DNA from: a virus
Virus record (IMG/VR): IMGVR_UViG_3300037246_001060
Coordinates: 1 to 43,521 of that record
Length of the DNA stretch: 43,521 bases
Reading direction: 5' to 3' (one strand)
Under the pieces are notes generated by a model, which worked only from the letters and a program-made list of their open reading frames with translations, was not told where the DNA came from and did not search any database. The translations under genes and the position numbers were made by a program. Of this stretch, positions 29,041 to 40,072 are shown piece by piece. The first letter of the stretch is position 1. Each line of letters starts with the position of its first letter.

Positions 29041-29169
29041 TTTTGCGCTCTGGCAATATGATGTGGTCGTTCTAATTGGCTCGCTTCTTTAGCTTGAAGT
29101 CGTCTGTCAACTTGGCTCGCTCGTCCTGAATGAAGCTGTCGTGATTCATGGCTAGTGCTTGGCTCGCGC
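29041..29169 (-). repeat. TIGR-like guide array 1a (3 units)
   Basis: Plus-strand edge blocks GGCTCGCT at 29078-29085 and 29114-29121, a half-preserved edge GGCTAGTG at 29150-29157 and a left-end edge TTTGCGCT at 29042-29049, all exactly 36 bp apart. An extra edge-like GGCTCGCG at 29161-29168 lies in the end of the upstream coding sequence. Loop blocks TGATGTGGTC, TGAAGTCGTC and TGAAGCTGTC lie midway. Variable 8-mers differ in every unit. Expected to be transcribed leftward with the operon; the strand is inferred. Confidence 0.75.
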
Positions 29170-29547
29170 ATCTATATCGAGACTTAACTTTATTATGCTC
29201 TTGTAGCTAGGATTGCTGGTACGGAGAATCGTCAACAACCTATCGACATAAATACTTTCGTCTCCGCGCAAGGGGCACACACTATCACCTACAACAATCG
29301 CCTTACCGACAACTTCAAAGCGCAACCCCTTTTCTGTCGGCTGCACCCCTTCGTCACTAATAAGCGAATCTAAAGTGACAGGGTAAAGTTTGACAAACTC
29401 TAAGAGTAAGTTCGACGGCATATTCCCTTTACGCTTATAATTGGAAAGAGCCTGCGGCGTAATGCCGAGCGCGTAAGCCAAGCGGGACGAATTTTTAAGC
29501 CCACTTGCCTCTAGCATTCTCTTTAACGTCTTCTCGTATTCCAGCAT
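29152..29547 (-). CDS. CI-like helix-turn-helix regulator
   Basis: 131 residues; AGGAGGGTAGG precedes ATG 29547, a very strong ribosome site. N-terminal HTH: LKRMLEASGLKNSSRLAYAL then GITPQALSNYKRKGNMPSNL (about residues 8-47), the phage CI-repressor N-terminal pattern. The C-terminus lacks a clear Ser/Lys protease site and ends DIDARAKH. It lies between two repeat arrays, and its last codons and TAG stop overlap edge blocks of array 1a. It may regulate the Tas operon or be a second repressor. Confidence 0.7.
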   Translation of the reverse strand: MLEYEKTLKRMLEASGLKNSSRLAYALGITPQALSNYKRKGNMPSNLLLEFVKLYPVTLDSLISDEGVQPTEKGLRFEVVGKAIVVGDSVCPLRGDESIYVDRLLTILRTSNPSYKSIIKLSLDIDARAKH

Positions 29548-29570: not shown

Positions 29571-29904
29571 CATTTCGCTCTTGCGTTTTGATGTAGTCTC
29601 TCTATGTGGCTCGCTTCCCAGCAGTGTAGTAGTCACTCCGTTTGGCTCGCTCATGCTTCCTGAAGTATTCATGCTAATTGGCTCGCTTTAGACCTATGTA
29701 GTAATCTCGCCCGGTGGCTCGCTCAGGGTTTTTGAAGTTGTCGCCCCTACATGGCTCGCTCTTGTTAGGTGATATTGTCTATCCTTTTGGCTCGCTTATG
29801 ATGTCTGAAGTTATCTTGATGTATGGCTCGCTCTAAAGGGATGAAGTATTCCTGTTAATTGGCTCGCTATATTCTCATGATGTTGTCTCGGTAATGGCTC
29901 GCTC
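29571..29904 (-). repeat. TIGR-like guide array 1b (9 units)
   Basis: Ten edge blocks start at 29572 (decayed, ATTTCGCT), 29608, 29644, 29680, 29716, 29753, 29789, 29825, 29861 and 29896; spacings are 36 bp except one 37 and one 35. Between edges lie TGAWGTWRTC-type loop blocks flanked by two variable segments of 8 nt, for example TTGTTAGG / ATCCTTTT pairs. The array begins at the base next to the tas stop codon and ends 25 bp before the HTH gene start. It matches the TIGR layout: edge, spacer, loop, spacer, 36 nt per unit. Confidence 0.85.
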
Positions 29905-30786
29905 TCATGGATTGATGTCTTTATTCTTCTTGGCTTTAACTTTTTTCTTGGCTTTAGCTTTAGGGGCCTTTGCTTTTGGTGCTTCCGGCGGCTCTATCTT
30001 GTGCGCGTGTCCGAGGTGCGAGAAGCAGTAAGGCTCCGGCGGCTTCTTTCCATATTCGAGTTCGTACATCTTCTCATGAAGGTGACTCAGGAAGAGCTTG
30101 ACGGCATACCTCTTCGCCCGTGCGTGGATATGCGCCGGGGGCAACTTACCCTGAATGTATGCTTTGTAAGCGTCCGTCGTCTTGCCTATTTTCTTCTCTA
30201 ATGCTTTGTCGGCCTGTTCCTTTAACTCCCCTGCTTCATTCCGTGAAATCTCCCAATCCTTACGCGCAATATAAACCTTGCCGTAAAAATCAGCCTCAAG
30301 CCCGGACACCTTTACGAACGACTCCCCTATCTTCCAGCACAGAACCTTCAGGTTCGCATTCCAAGGTCTCTTCGTTTTCTTCTCCCAAATTGCGGAAGGA
30401 TCAAGCCCTGCATATCTCCACACAGAGCCTACAGTCGGAGCCTTGGTTATATCTATGTGCGCCAGAAGTCCAGCAGCAATGACAGGACCAATACCAGAGA
30501 TACTCTTCGCCCATATACCAATAGGGTGATGATCGGTGTAGACATCGAGCACCCTCTTTATGTTATTCTCAAGAGACCTATGCTGTCCTGCAAACCACTC
30601 CAACAACCTGTTCGGCTCTTCTGTACTGCCTATCTGATTCGTAGAAGCCTTACGGTTTTCCTGTATGGTATAATAAAGGTCTACCAGATACCGTGCCTCG
30701 TTAGGATCAAGAGTCTTTGCTGCTTCTCTAAGGTCTTTGTTGAGTCTTGCTATTAGCTCAAGACTACTGTCTTCCTTCTTTGACAT
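29905..30786 (-). CDS. tas: Tas protein, Nop-domain RNA-guided DNA-binding protein (TasA-like)
   Basis: 293 residues. The core has GIGPVIAAGLLAHI at 98-111 and RYAGLDPS at 124-131, the HhH-type pattern shared by the C-terminal domain of IS110 transposases and Nop-like domains, then HARAKRYAVKLFLSHLHEKM at 221-240. The N-terminal 90 residues are helical (NEARYLVDLYYTIQENRKAS). A Lys/Ala-rich tail (270-288) would aid RNA or DNA binding. There is no RuvC/DEDD domain and no HNH, so it is not an active IS110 transposase; it fits Nop-only members of the TIGR-associated (Tas) family. The adjacent 36-bp arrays are the expected guide source. Expected action: tigRNA-guided DNA binding without cleavage. 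Confidence 0.8.
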   Translation of the reverse strand: MSKKEDSSLELIARLNKDLREAAKTLDPNEARYLVDLYYTIQENRKASTNQIGSTEEPNRLLEWFAGQHRSLENNIKRVLDVYTDHHPIGIWAKSISGIGPVIAAGLLAHIDITKAPTVGSVWRYAGLDPSAIWEKKTKRPWNANLKVLCWKIGESFVKVSGLEADFYGKVYIARKDWEISRNEAGELKEQADKALEKKIGKTTDAYKAYIQGKLPPAHIHARAKRYAVKLFLSHLHEKMYELEYGKKPPEPYCFSHLGHAHKIEPPEAPKAKAPKAKAKKKVKAKKNKDINP

Positions 30787-32846: not shown

Positions 32847-33218
32847 TTAGTTGTGTGACTGTTCATTTGGGTCTTCTCCTATGTCGCAAAGAAAGTTGTG
32901 TATCGCGTCTCGCGCCTCTTCGTCGTTCGGCCCCTCTTCCCAGCCCTCTCTACTGAGAGCACGGTAGGCCCTCGTAAGCACTCTTATCGCCCTAAATTCG
33001 TCAAAATTAGAAAACCGTTTATTCCACAAAGTGACAGCCTCTTCGCTCGTCCCCGCAAGCGGACCTTCTGCATAACAGACATGACAGTGGACGTAGTAAA
33101 GTGGGTGCTCAGAAGGCATCCCTTTTGAAGTAGGGCCGTAGACCTCCAATAACGGGACAGGGCGACCCTCTTTTCTTAAATGACTCACATCGCTTTTACA
33201 GTAAGGGCAGTCTTTCAT
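32847..33218 (-). CDS. Lar-like restriction alleviation protein
   Basis: 123 residues. N-terminal MKDCPYCKSDVSHL (CxxC), then YYVHCHVCYAEGPLAGTSEE and AVTLWNKRF: the Lar pattern (CPFCG ... V-C--CGA-GP---EA---WN-R). Such proteins protect phage DNA from type I restriction, or are general small zinc proteins in phages. The C-terminal part is an acidic helix ending PNEQSHN. It is coupled to the gene at 33215. Confidence 0.7.
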   Translation of the reverse strand: MKDCPYCKSDVSHLRKEGRPVPLLEVYGPTSKGMPSEHPLYYVHCHVCYAEGPLAGTSEEAVTLWNKRFSNFDEFRAIRVLTRAYRALSREGWEEGPNDEEARDAIHNFLCDIGEDPNEQSHN

Positions 33219-38900: not shown

Positions 38901-39632
38901 CTAAAAAGGTATGTCGTCGATGTCTGCTGGCTCATCTGCCGGACTGTGATACTGGTTCATATCCTCTGCGAGTTTTCTCAGGTTGCCGAGGCTCTTGGCG
39001 CACCATTTCTCGCTCGACTTATTGATGTCCCGTATCCACCTCTCATCGCCGGGGCTGCCAAAGATAGAGATATTCTTAAGAACCTCGTCCATGACAGCCT
39101 CGTCGCCGTTGCAATATTCGTGAAGCTCTTTTTTGAGTTTATCTTTTGCGGTTGTGTGTGTCGGTGGTGCATCTGAGGCAGGCGCAGAGCGCGACGGCTC
39201 GGCCTTCTTTGGGTAGGACTTCTTCTTCTCGGTCTTGGTCTCTCTACCCATTGCCCCCTCACCGTCGTCGTCTTCGGGAGAGATACCAACCATAGCAGCA
39301 AGAGCATACCGTCTGCCGTAGGTGATAGCAGAACCTATCCCTTGCGGGTCTTGCTTAGTAGGCTTTAATAGGAGCCGCCCTGCTATCCACTCACCGCTCT
39401 TGTGAAGGAGTACGGTTTCGATAATTACGCCAGAGTCAGTTACGTCAGTCGGTTGTGTAACAGCAAGGCCGTTCTTAGTCAACGACTCCCGGCAAGCGTC
39501 CCATACGCTTGTGAGGTCCGCGTACTGAGAGTGGAAAAAAGGGTTCTCGCTATCCTTGACCGCGCCCTTTAACACTGCCTGCACTGCACATAATGCCTCT
39601 GCTAACTTTGCTATGTTCTCGCTCTTTTTCAT
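38901..39632 (-). CDS. erf: ERF-family single-strand annealing recombinase
   Basis: 243 residues. N-terminal AKLAEALCAVQAVLKGAVKD then NPFFHSQYADLTSVWDACRE, LTKNGLAVTQPTDVTDSG and DPQGIGSAITYGRRYALAAM are the ERF signature. It anneals complementary ssDNA in phage recombination. The tail ends DIDDIPF, like an SSB acidic tip, suggesting interaction with host SSB partners. The start codon (39632-39630) abuts the leftmost edge block of array 2, whose GAGAGCG may serve as ribosome site. Confidence 0.85.
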   Translation of the reverse strand: MKKSENIAKLAEALCAVQAVLKGAVKDSENPFFHSQYADLTSVWDACRESLTKNGLAVTQPTDVTDSGVIIETVLLHKSGEWIAGRLLLKPTKQDPQGIGSAITYGRRYALAAMVGISPEDDDGEGAMGRETKTEKKKSYPKKAEPSRSAPASDAPPTHTTAKDKLKKELHEYCNGDEAVMDEVLKNISIFGSPGDERWIRDINKSSEKWCAKSLGNLRKLAEDMNQYHSPADEPADIDDIPF

Positions 39633-40072
39633 TTACGCTCTCATTCTTTGAAGTTGTCTCGTTATGTGGCTCGCTCACATTGCCTGAAGTATTCTGTTCT
39701 TATGGCTCGCTCTGGTTCGGTGAGGTAGTCTGATTTAATGGCTCGCTCAACATCTATGATGTTCTCTGCTCATTTGGCACACTCAAGGCTTTTGAAGTTG
39801 TCTACCATTTTGGTTCGCTCCAATAACATGATGTGGTCGCATGACTTGGCTCACTCTTTTCGCTTGAAGTTGTCTACCGTCTTGGTTCGCTCTCGCCAAT
39901 TGATGTTTTCTATTGAGGTGGCTCGCTCAGTGCGTTTGAAGTGGTCTCTTCTATTGGCTCGCTCATACCCTTTGAAGTTGTCTATTTTTTTGGCTCGCTC
40001 ACTGTTTGTGTCGTCGTTAGGGTCTTTGGCTCGCTCTGTGGCATTGATGTGGTCCCTCCATTTGGCTCGCTC
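39631..40072 (-). repeat. TIGR-like guide array 2 (12 units)
   Basis: Thirteen edge blocks occur at exact 36-bp steps from 39632 to 40064 (starts 39632, 39668, 39704, 39740, 39776, 39812, 39848, 39884, 39920, 39956, 39992, 40028, 40064). Consensus TGGCTCGCTC on the plus strand, with single changes such as GGTTCGCT and GGCACACT, and the leftmost decayed to TTTACGCT. Loop blocks are TGAAGTTGTC or variants such as TGATGTGGTC and one TGTCGTCGTT. Variable 8-mers differ in all units, 24 in total. It fills the entire gap between the genes at 40073 and 39632 and carries no tas gene of its own. A plus-strand reading frame through the array is an artefact of the 36-bp period. Confidence 0.85.

What the first reader, a model, noticed from the sequence alone, without database searches (positions are those of the whole stretch)
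29571..30786. A TIGR-Tas system: Nop-domain protein followed directly by a 36-bp guide array
Seen: a 293-residue protein with an IS110-C-terminal/Nop-like core and no nuclease, whose stop codon touches a 9-unit array of 36-bp units. Each unit has two conserved 10-nt blocks and two variable 8-nt segments. Known: TIGR-Tas systems (described 2025) pair Nop-domain Tas proteins with tandem interspaced guide RNA arrays cut to 36-nt tigRNAs that bind DNA with two short spacers; nuclease-free Tas proteins occur. Inference: this is a nuclease-less (TasA-type) system used to bind, and perhaps silence, DNA of competitors or the host. A phage-borne Nop-only system with several arrays is hardly characterised.
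Basis: partly seen in the sequence, partly recalled or inferred. Interest (0 to 1): 0.97.

Follow-up and report, generated by a model that had tools for sequence, protein, structure and literature searches.

The report
Phage TIGR-TasA system with three arrays
A temperate phage carries a nuclease-free TIGR-Tas RNA-guided DNA-binding system, one protein plus three short arrays holding 25 two-part guides; it is a clear new member of a family described in 2025, and one relative in a sequenced bacterium carries a guide that exactly matches another mobile element in the same genome, which suggests these phages silence rival elements.

Summary
The 293-aa protein (29905-30786, minus strand) is a nuclease-less Tas protein: its nearest solved relatives by sequence and by predicted fold are TasR (9mty) and TasH (9w04, 21kl), then IS110 transposases. 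The window holds three dual-repeat arrays, not one: 10, 3 and 12 guides, 25 in all. The guides lie on the tas-sense (minus) strand: repeats GAGCGAGCCA (edge) and GAC-N-AC-N-TCA (loop) with 8-nt spacers. The experimentally characterised Salicola phage TasH array uses nearly the same edge in the same orientation, with a terminator. In 90 relatives every confident near-tas array lies on the tas strand, and edge pairs covary. No small-RNA or binding data exist here. About 1,100 guides show no excess of self-targets. One relative, a prophage of Acidobacteriaceae KBS 96, has a guide matching 16/16 bp in the early-gene region of another integrated phage-like element in the same chromosome (about 0.04 such hits expected genome-wide for its six guides). 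Likely function: RNA-guided, cleavage-free silencing of rival mobile elements; identity is near certain, function about 0.55.

The parts
29905..30786 (-). tasA gene, 293 aa, solo Nop/IS110-C-terminal protein, no nuclease domain, with a Lys/Ala-rich C-terminal tail that relatives lack
29575..29935 (-). TIGR array 2, 10 guides, between tasA and a CI-like repressor gene; its first unit overlaps the 3' end of the tasA ORF by 31 bp; ends in a 3'-truncated edge GAGCGA
29045..29154 (-). TIGR array 1, 3 guides; begins at the stop codon of the CI-like repressor (TAGCCA) and ends in truncated edge GAGCGC just before the next gene's Shine-Dalgarno sequence
39635..40072 (-). TIGR array 3, 12 guides, ending 2 nt before the start codon of the ERF recombinase gene
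29152..29547 (-). CI-type phage repressor gene lying between arrays 2 and 1, probably in the same transcript
   Evidence: PF07022, E=6.9e-7
38901..39632 (-). ERF-family single-strand annealing protein gene directly downstream of array 3
   Evidence: PF04404, E=6.4e-25

Best explanation
This is a phage-borne TIGR-TasA system of the dual-repeat type. Leftward (minus-strand) operon transcripts carry the arrays as intergenic stretches. They are cut within each edge repeat, most likely GAGCGA^GCCA, giving 36-nt tigRNAs (GCCA, 8-nt spacer A, 10-nt loop repeat, 8-nt spacer B, GAGCGA). A TasA dimer binds one tigRNA; spacers A and B pair with opposite strands of an adjacent target 5'-A-(0-2 nt)-rc(B)-3'. 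Without a nuclease the complex bends and occupies the DNA, and the most likely use is to block early genes of competing mobile elements (other phages, prophages or satellites) in the same host. Shown here: protein family, absence of nuclease, arrays, orientation, repeat covariation, absence of self-targets. Inferred: processing, dimer and pairing (from TasR/TasH), silencing of rivals (from one candidate natural target in a relative).
For: Sequence and fold: TasR E=5.2e-16, profile 1.2e-29 and TasH 2.1e-16, Foldseek top 11 PDB hits all TasH/TasR with probability 1.00, all-helical model without RuvC/HNH. Arrays. Orientation: every confident near-tas array found in 90 relatives is on the tas strand; Salicola phage CGphi29 (the published SpTIGR) has AAGCGAGCCA-8-AAGACAACCA-8 on the tasH strand, followed by a rho-independent terminator on that strand. 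Processing site: arrays start with truncated (A)GCCA fused to the upstream stop codon (23 of 41 loci, counted from the list) and end with GAGCGA, which sums to 36 nt. Edge pairs 3-8 and 4-7 covary (G-C/A-T/T-A and C-G/T-A among locus consensuses). A and B of a unit are inherited together: 107 of 127 interior breakpoints between shared spacer runs fall in edge repeats, 20 in loop repeats. No self-targeting: own-locus matches equal permuted pairings. Candidate natural target: KBS 96 guide 2 matches 16/16, gap 0, in codons 9-14 of an excisionase-like gene (phrog_66) of an integrated element with integrase, repressor, replication, capsid and head-protease genes; guide 5 matches 14/16 in the same element.
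Against: No RNA, binding or phage-competition data. No target was found for any of the window's 25 guides. The KBS 96 case is one lysogen, its location criterion is post hoc, and the Halomonas lysogen gave only a GC-rich, chance-like hit in a transporter gene. The published TasR did not block phage or conjugation in E. coli (PMC12045711). No rho-independent terminator follows the window arrays, unlike the published typical array.
Confidence: 0.66

Rival explanations
1. TIGR-TasA acts on the phage's own genome: it regulates phage genes (for instance the CI-like switch) or bends the attachment site to help the integrase.
For: Array 2 and array 1 flank a CI-like repressor gene and array 3 leads the recombination operon; the TIGR-Tas authors proposed an integrase aid (PMC12045711).
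Against: None of the 25 guides matches the 43.5-kb window with 0 or 1 mismatch, and across about 1,100 guides own-locus matches equal permuted pairs. Weak pairing (many mismatches) and sites outside the 20-kb loci of relatives cannot be excluded.
Confidence: 0.08
2. TIGR-TasA targets host chromosomal genes to reprogramme the host during infection or lysogeny (RNA-guided repression of defence or metabolic genes).
For: The system is suited to it; the Halomonas guide has an exact match in an MFS transporter gene of its own host.
Against: That guide is GC-rich in a 67% GC genome and has many near-matches, as expected by chance; five of the six KBS 96 guides and all but that one of the Halomonas guides searched genome-wide have no exact host match.
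Confidence: 0.2
3. The protein is a decayed IS110-type transposase and the array is an unrelated tandem repeat.
For: Pfam calls it Transposase_20, PHROGs 'transposase'.
Against: TasR/TasH match far better than IS110; there is no DEDD domain; arrays lie beside tas in nearly all relatives, on the same strand; repeats covary and match the Salicola TIGR array.
Confidence: 0.02

Closest known systems
TIGR-TasH of Salicola phage CGphi29 (SpTIGR; PMC12045711)
   Same: Edge repeat nearly identical (AAGCGAGCCA against GAGCGAGCCA), 10+8+10+8 unit, array on the tas strand, phage-borne
   Different: Has an HNH nuclease; a single array directly downstream with a rho-independent terminator; here there is no nuclease and three operon-internal arrays without terminators
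TIGR-TasA of Flavonifractor plautii (FpTIGR; PMC12045711)
   Same: Solo Nop-domain protein plus dual-repeat array, by description
   Different: 9-nt spacers (18 nt in all) against 8 nt here; its sequence was not compared here
TIGR-TasR (9mty)
   Same: Same Nop/coiled-coil core, 23-24% identity in the structural alignment; repeats ending in CCA (box C)
   Different: N-terminal RuvC nuclease absent here; box D is UG there, while repeats begin with GA here
TasA-like protein and array of cultured Microcystis phage Mvi-JY20
   Same: Nuclease-free Tas protein with downstream array (ATGCGAGCC / ACGAAACCC repeats, period 36) in an isolated phage
   Different: 27.9% identity, other repeats, terminator present

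Membership tests
TIGR-Tas, dual-repeat type | Nop-domain (IS110-C-like) Tas protein | tested here: met
   Profile to TasR 1.2e-29, TasH 2.1e-16; Foldseek top hits TasH/TasR
TIGR-Tas, dual-repeat type | Array of two alternating 8-12 nt repeats separated by short spacers, about 36-nt period | tested here: met
   10+8+10+8, 25 guides in three arrays
TIGR-Tas, dual-repeat type | Array next to the tas gene | tested here: met
   Array 2 overlaps the tas 3' end; same in relatives
TIGR-Tas, dual-repeat type | Truncated edge repeats at both array ends | tested here: met
   AGCCA or TAGCCA start and GAGCGA/GAGCGC/GAGCGT end in the window; array 3 starts with a full edge
TIGR-Tas, dual-repeat type | Box C/D-like ends shared by edge and loop; covarying edge pairs | tested here: met
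   Both repeats begin GA and end CA; edge pairs 3-8 and 4-7 covary over 69 loci
TIGR-Tas, dual-repeat type | Rho-independent terminator after the array | tested here: not met
   None found at the array ends; described as typical, not as obligatory, and the arrays here lie inside operons
TIGR-Tas, dual-repeat type | Array processed into 36-nt tigRNAs bound by Tas | not testable with these tools
   Needs small-RNA sequencing and pull-down
TIGR-Tas, dual-repeat type | Tandem-spacer DNA targeting | not testable with these tools
   Needs binding assays; geometry used here was derived from PMC12045711
TasA subtype | No RuvC or HNH domain | tested here: met
   Aligns to TasR only from TasR residue 111 on; all-helical model; no nuclease family
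TasA-TasParB operon | parB-like gene in the tas operon | tested here: not met
   No ParB family among the neighbouring ORFs scanned; a ParB-like ORF is seen beside tas in about five relatives
IS110 transposase | N-terminal DEDD/RuvC-like catalytic domain | tested here: not met
   Absent

The most novel reading that the evidence does not exclude
Phage TIGR-TasA arrays are a cleavage-free, RNA-guided silencing system against co-resident mobile elements: in Acidobacteriaceae KBS 96 a TIGR prophage carries one guide that matches exactly, and a second that matches 14/16, an integrated satellite-like element at its early excisionase and replication genes. If so, this is a first natural target for TIGR-Tas and points to phage-satellite or phage-phage conflict as its role.
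Probability: 0.4. Interest if true: 0.82.

Novelty: new member of a known kind. Interest (0 to 1): 0.52.

Why it matters
The natural targets and function of TIGR systems, above all of nuclease-free TasA, were open when they were described (PMC12045711). This locus is another clean case, and the comparison around it gives testable statements: guides avoid their own phage, guide halves are inherited as pairs, the mature RNA ends can be read from the truncated repeats, and one lysogen offers a concrete guide-target pair inside a rival element.

Tried and rejected
Self-targeting: no excess. Targets in relatives' loci: true pairings gave 5 exact hits, permuted pairings 0-9. Window guides against 450 kb of phages related by terminase or capsid, and against the tas loci: no exact hit. 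IMG/VR exact scans for a conserved guide of a relative, for the reverse geometry and for the KBS 96 guide: noise level, dominated by conserved coding motifs. Palindromic targets (A resembling B): the signal seen with global shuffling mostly disappears with within-array shuffling. Halomonas exact hit: judged chance. Conserved neighbour genes: none shared between the window and relatives. Rfam: no match. Mycobacteriophage 'transposase' relatives: the one checked (Rufus) has no array. One Pfam scan of the KBS 96 element failed on a coordinate error and was not repeated, since PHROGs had answered.

Full report
What is there. The minus-strand ORF 29905-30786 encodes 293 aa. Three arrays of 36-bp units lie in the window, all with the same repeats: 29575-29935 (10 guides), 29045-29154 (3) and 39635-40072 (12). 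Read on the minus strand, a unit is edge GAGCGAGCCA, 8-nt spacer A, loop GAC-N-AC-(T/A)-TCA, 8-nt spacer B. One unit has a 9-nt and one a 7-nt spacer. Shuffled sequences gave one chain over the threshold among 91, far below the scores of these arrays. The window is a virus record of 43,521 bases of a temperate tailed phage: integrase, ERF, terminase, portal, major head protein and an internal virion protein family are present.

The protein. Pfam gives only the IS110 C-terminal domain and PHROGs a 'transposase' family. Against the PDB, the single sequence finds TasR (9mty, E=5e-16) and TasH (21kl, 1e-7). A profile of 35 relatives gives TasR 1.2e-29, TasH 2.1e-16 and IS621 1.6e-5. The AlphaFold2 model is confident (pLDDT 89.6, pTM 0.84) and all-helical. 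Its eleven best solved matches are TasH and TasR complexes, followed by IS110 recombinases. The protein aligns to TasR only from TasR residue 111, so the nuclease half is missing: TasA by definition. Its Lys/Ala-rich tail is not shared by the aligned relatives.

Relatives and orientation. Scans found 92 IMG/VR and 10 GTDB loci encoding relatives; 80 and 10 were kept. A two-state repeat model finds arrays beside tas in nearly all of them, and every confident near-tas array is on the tas-sense strand (searches give positions and spacers). On that strand both repeats end in (C/T)CA, like box C of TasR arrays. Salicola phage CGphi29, whose TasH array was shown to yield 36-nt RNAs (PMC12045711), has AAGCGAGCCA-8-AAGACAACCA-8 on the tasH strand, ending in a rho-independent terminator. 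Together these fix the transcribed strand as the minus strand of the window.

Mature RNA ends. Relatives' arrays begin at the tas stop codon with a truncated edge, such as TAAGCCA or TAGCCA (23 of 41 loci with an array within 60 nt of the stop, counted from the list), and end with GAGCGA before the next gene. In the window, array 1 starts in the same way at the stop of the CI-like repressor, and arrays 2, 1 and 3 end in GAGCGA, GAGCGC and GAGCGT. GCCA+8+10+8+GAGCGA is 36 nt, the published tigRNA length, so the cut is predicted at GAGCGA^GCCA. Edge pairs 3-8 and 4-7, which would close the two ends of the mature RNA, covary across loci.

How it probably works. TasR binds as a dimer, with spacers A and B pairing to opposite strands of adjacent DNA and a sharp bend (PMC12045711). 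TasA has the same core without the nuclease, so guided occupancy is the expected outcome. From the published 8-nt 3' overhang I derived the target as 5'-A-(0-2)-rc(B)-3'; one sentence of the paper on the cut site does not agree with this, so the reverse geometry was tested too. Neither geometry gives any excess of matches within the own locus over permuted pairs, for about 1,100 guides, so the guides most likely act on other DNA.

A candidate natural target. For two lysogens with a sequenced host, guides were searched genome-wide: all six of Acidobacteriaceae KBS 96 and four of Halomonas NO4, the rest of the Halomonas guides only against 1.9 Mb of that genome. KBS 96 guide 2 (TAAAAGCA/TTCGATTC) matches 16/16 with no gap at 6,329,962, more than 0.4 Mb (6.2 Mb by coordinate on the scaffold) from its own prophage. 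The site is in codons 9-14 of an excisionase-like gene (phrog_66), between a repressor-integrase pair and a replication gene, in a 7.8-kb integrated element that also has major-head and head-protease genes. The expected number of exact matches for the six guides in that genome is 0.04 (empirical estimate about 0.06). Guide 5 matches the same element at 14/16, with both mismatches at the outer end of spacer A, while 30 permuted pairs gave one match of that quality there. The location argument is post hoc and this is one lysogen. The Halomonas exact match is GC-rich, in a transporter gene, and looks like chance. I therefore call the KBS 96 site a candidate.

Array evolution. Closely related arrays share runs of guides; 107 of 127 interior run boundaries lie in edge repeats and 20 in loop repeats. 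The half-guides are thus mostly inherited as a pair, as expected if A and B must act together. In one group, 15 half-guides occur with clearly different partners against about 0.3 collisions expected, so exchange at loop repeats also occurs. The boundaries are not independent events.

Verdict. Identity as TIGR-TasA is near certain. Within the family it is ordinary in protein and repeats, and modestly unusual in having three operon-internal arrays without terminators, around a CI-like repressor and directly before the ERF gene. Multi-array loci are common among relatives. Function against rival mobile elements is my best reading, at about 0.55.

Noticed in passing
L163:1501-1516; L165-L167 (KBS 96, 6.324-6.332 Mb): Short integrated phage-like element (integrase, repressor, excisionase-like, replication, major head protein, head protease; no terminase or portal seen), possibly a capsid-encoding satellite, matched exactly by a guide of a TIGR prophage in the same genome.
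   Followed up: yes
L006, L007, L012, L014: Related arrays share blocks of guides in shuffled order; some half-guides recur with different partners, and guide GGAGTATC/AGCACGCG is kept in all four arrays (twice in L014).
   Followed up: partly
L160 (Microcystis phage Mvi-JY20, PP438412.1): A cultured cyanophage carries an unannotated nuclease-free Tas-like gene with a downstream 36-bp-period array and terminator: a possible laboratory model.
   Followed up: partly
L161 (Mycobacterium phage Rufus): Seventy-two mycobacteriophage records hold a distant Tas/IS110-like 'transposase'; the one checked has no array nearby.
   Followed up: partly
L005:10807-12537 and similar ORFs in about four other relatives: A ParB-like ORF on the tas strand near tas, consistent with the published TasParB association (recognised by eye, not by a family search).
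   Followed up: no
29905-29993: The Lys/Ala-rich tail of this TasA runs into the first array unit (AAAGCCA where relatives have TAAGCCA), as if a stop codon was lost and array sequence became coding.
   Followed up: partly
32847-33218 (-): Protein with a restriction-alleviation (Lar) family match in the same leftward region.
   Followed up: no
L129 (IMGVR_UViG_3300043173_000630): A 9.5-kb contig with terminase and major head protein 100% identical to the window: the same or a nearly identical phage in another record.
   Followed up: no
L079:7602-9869: Very long TIGR array region, over 60 units in three blocks upstream of tas.
   Followed up: no
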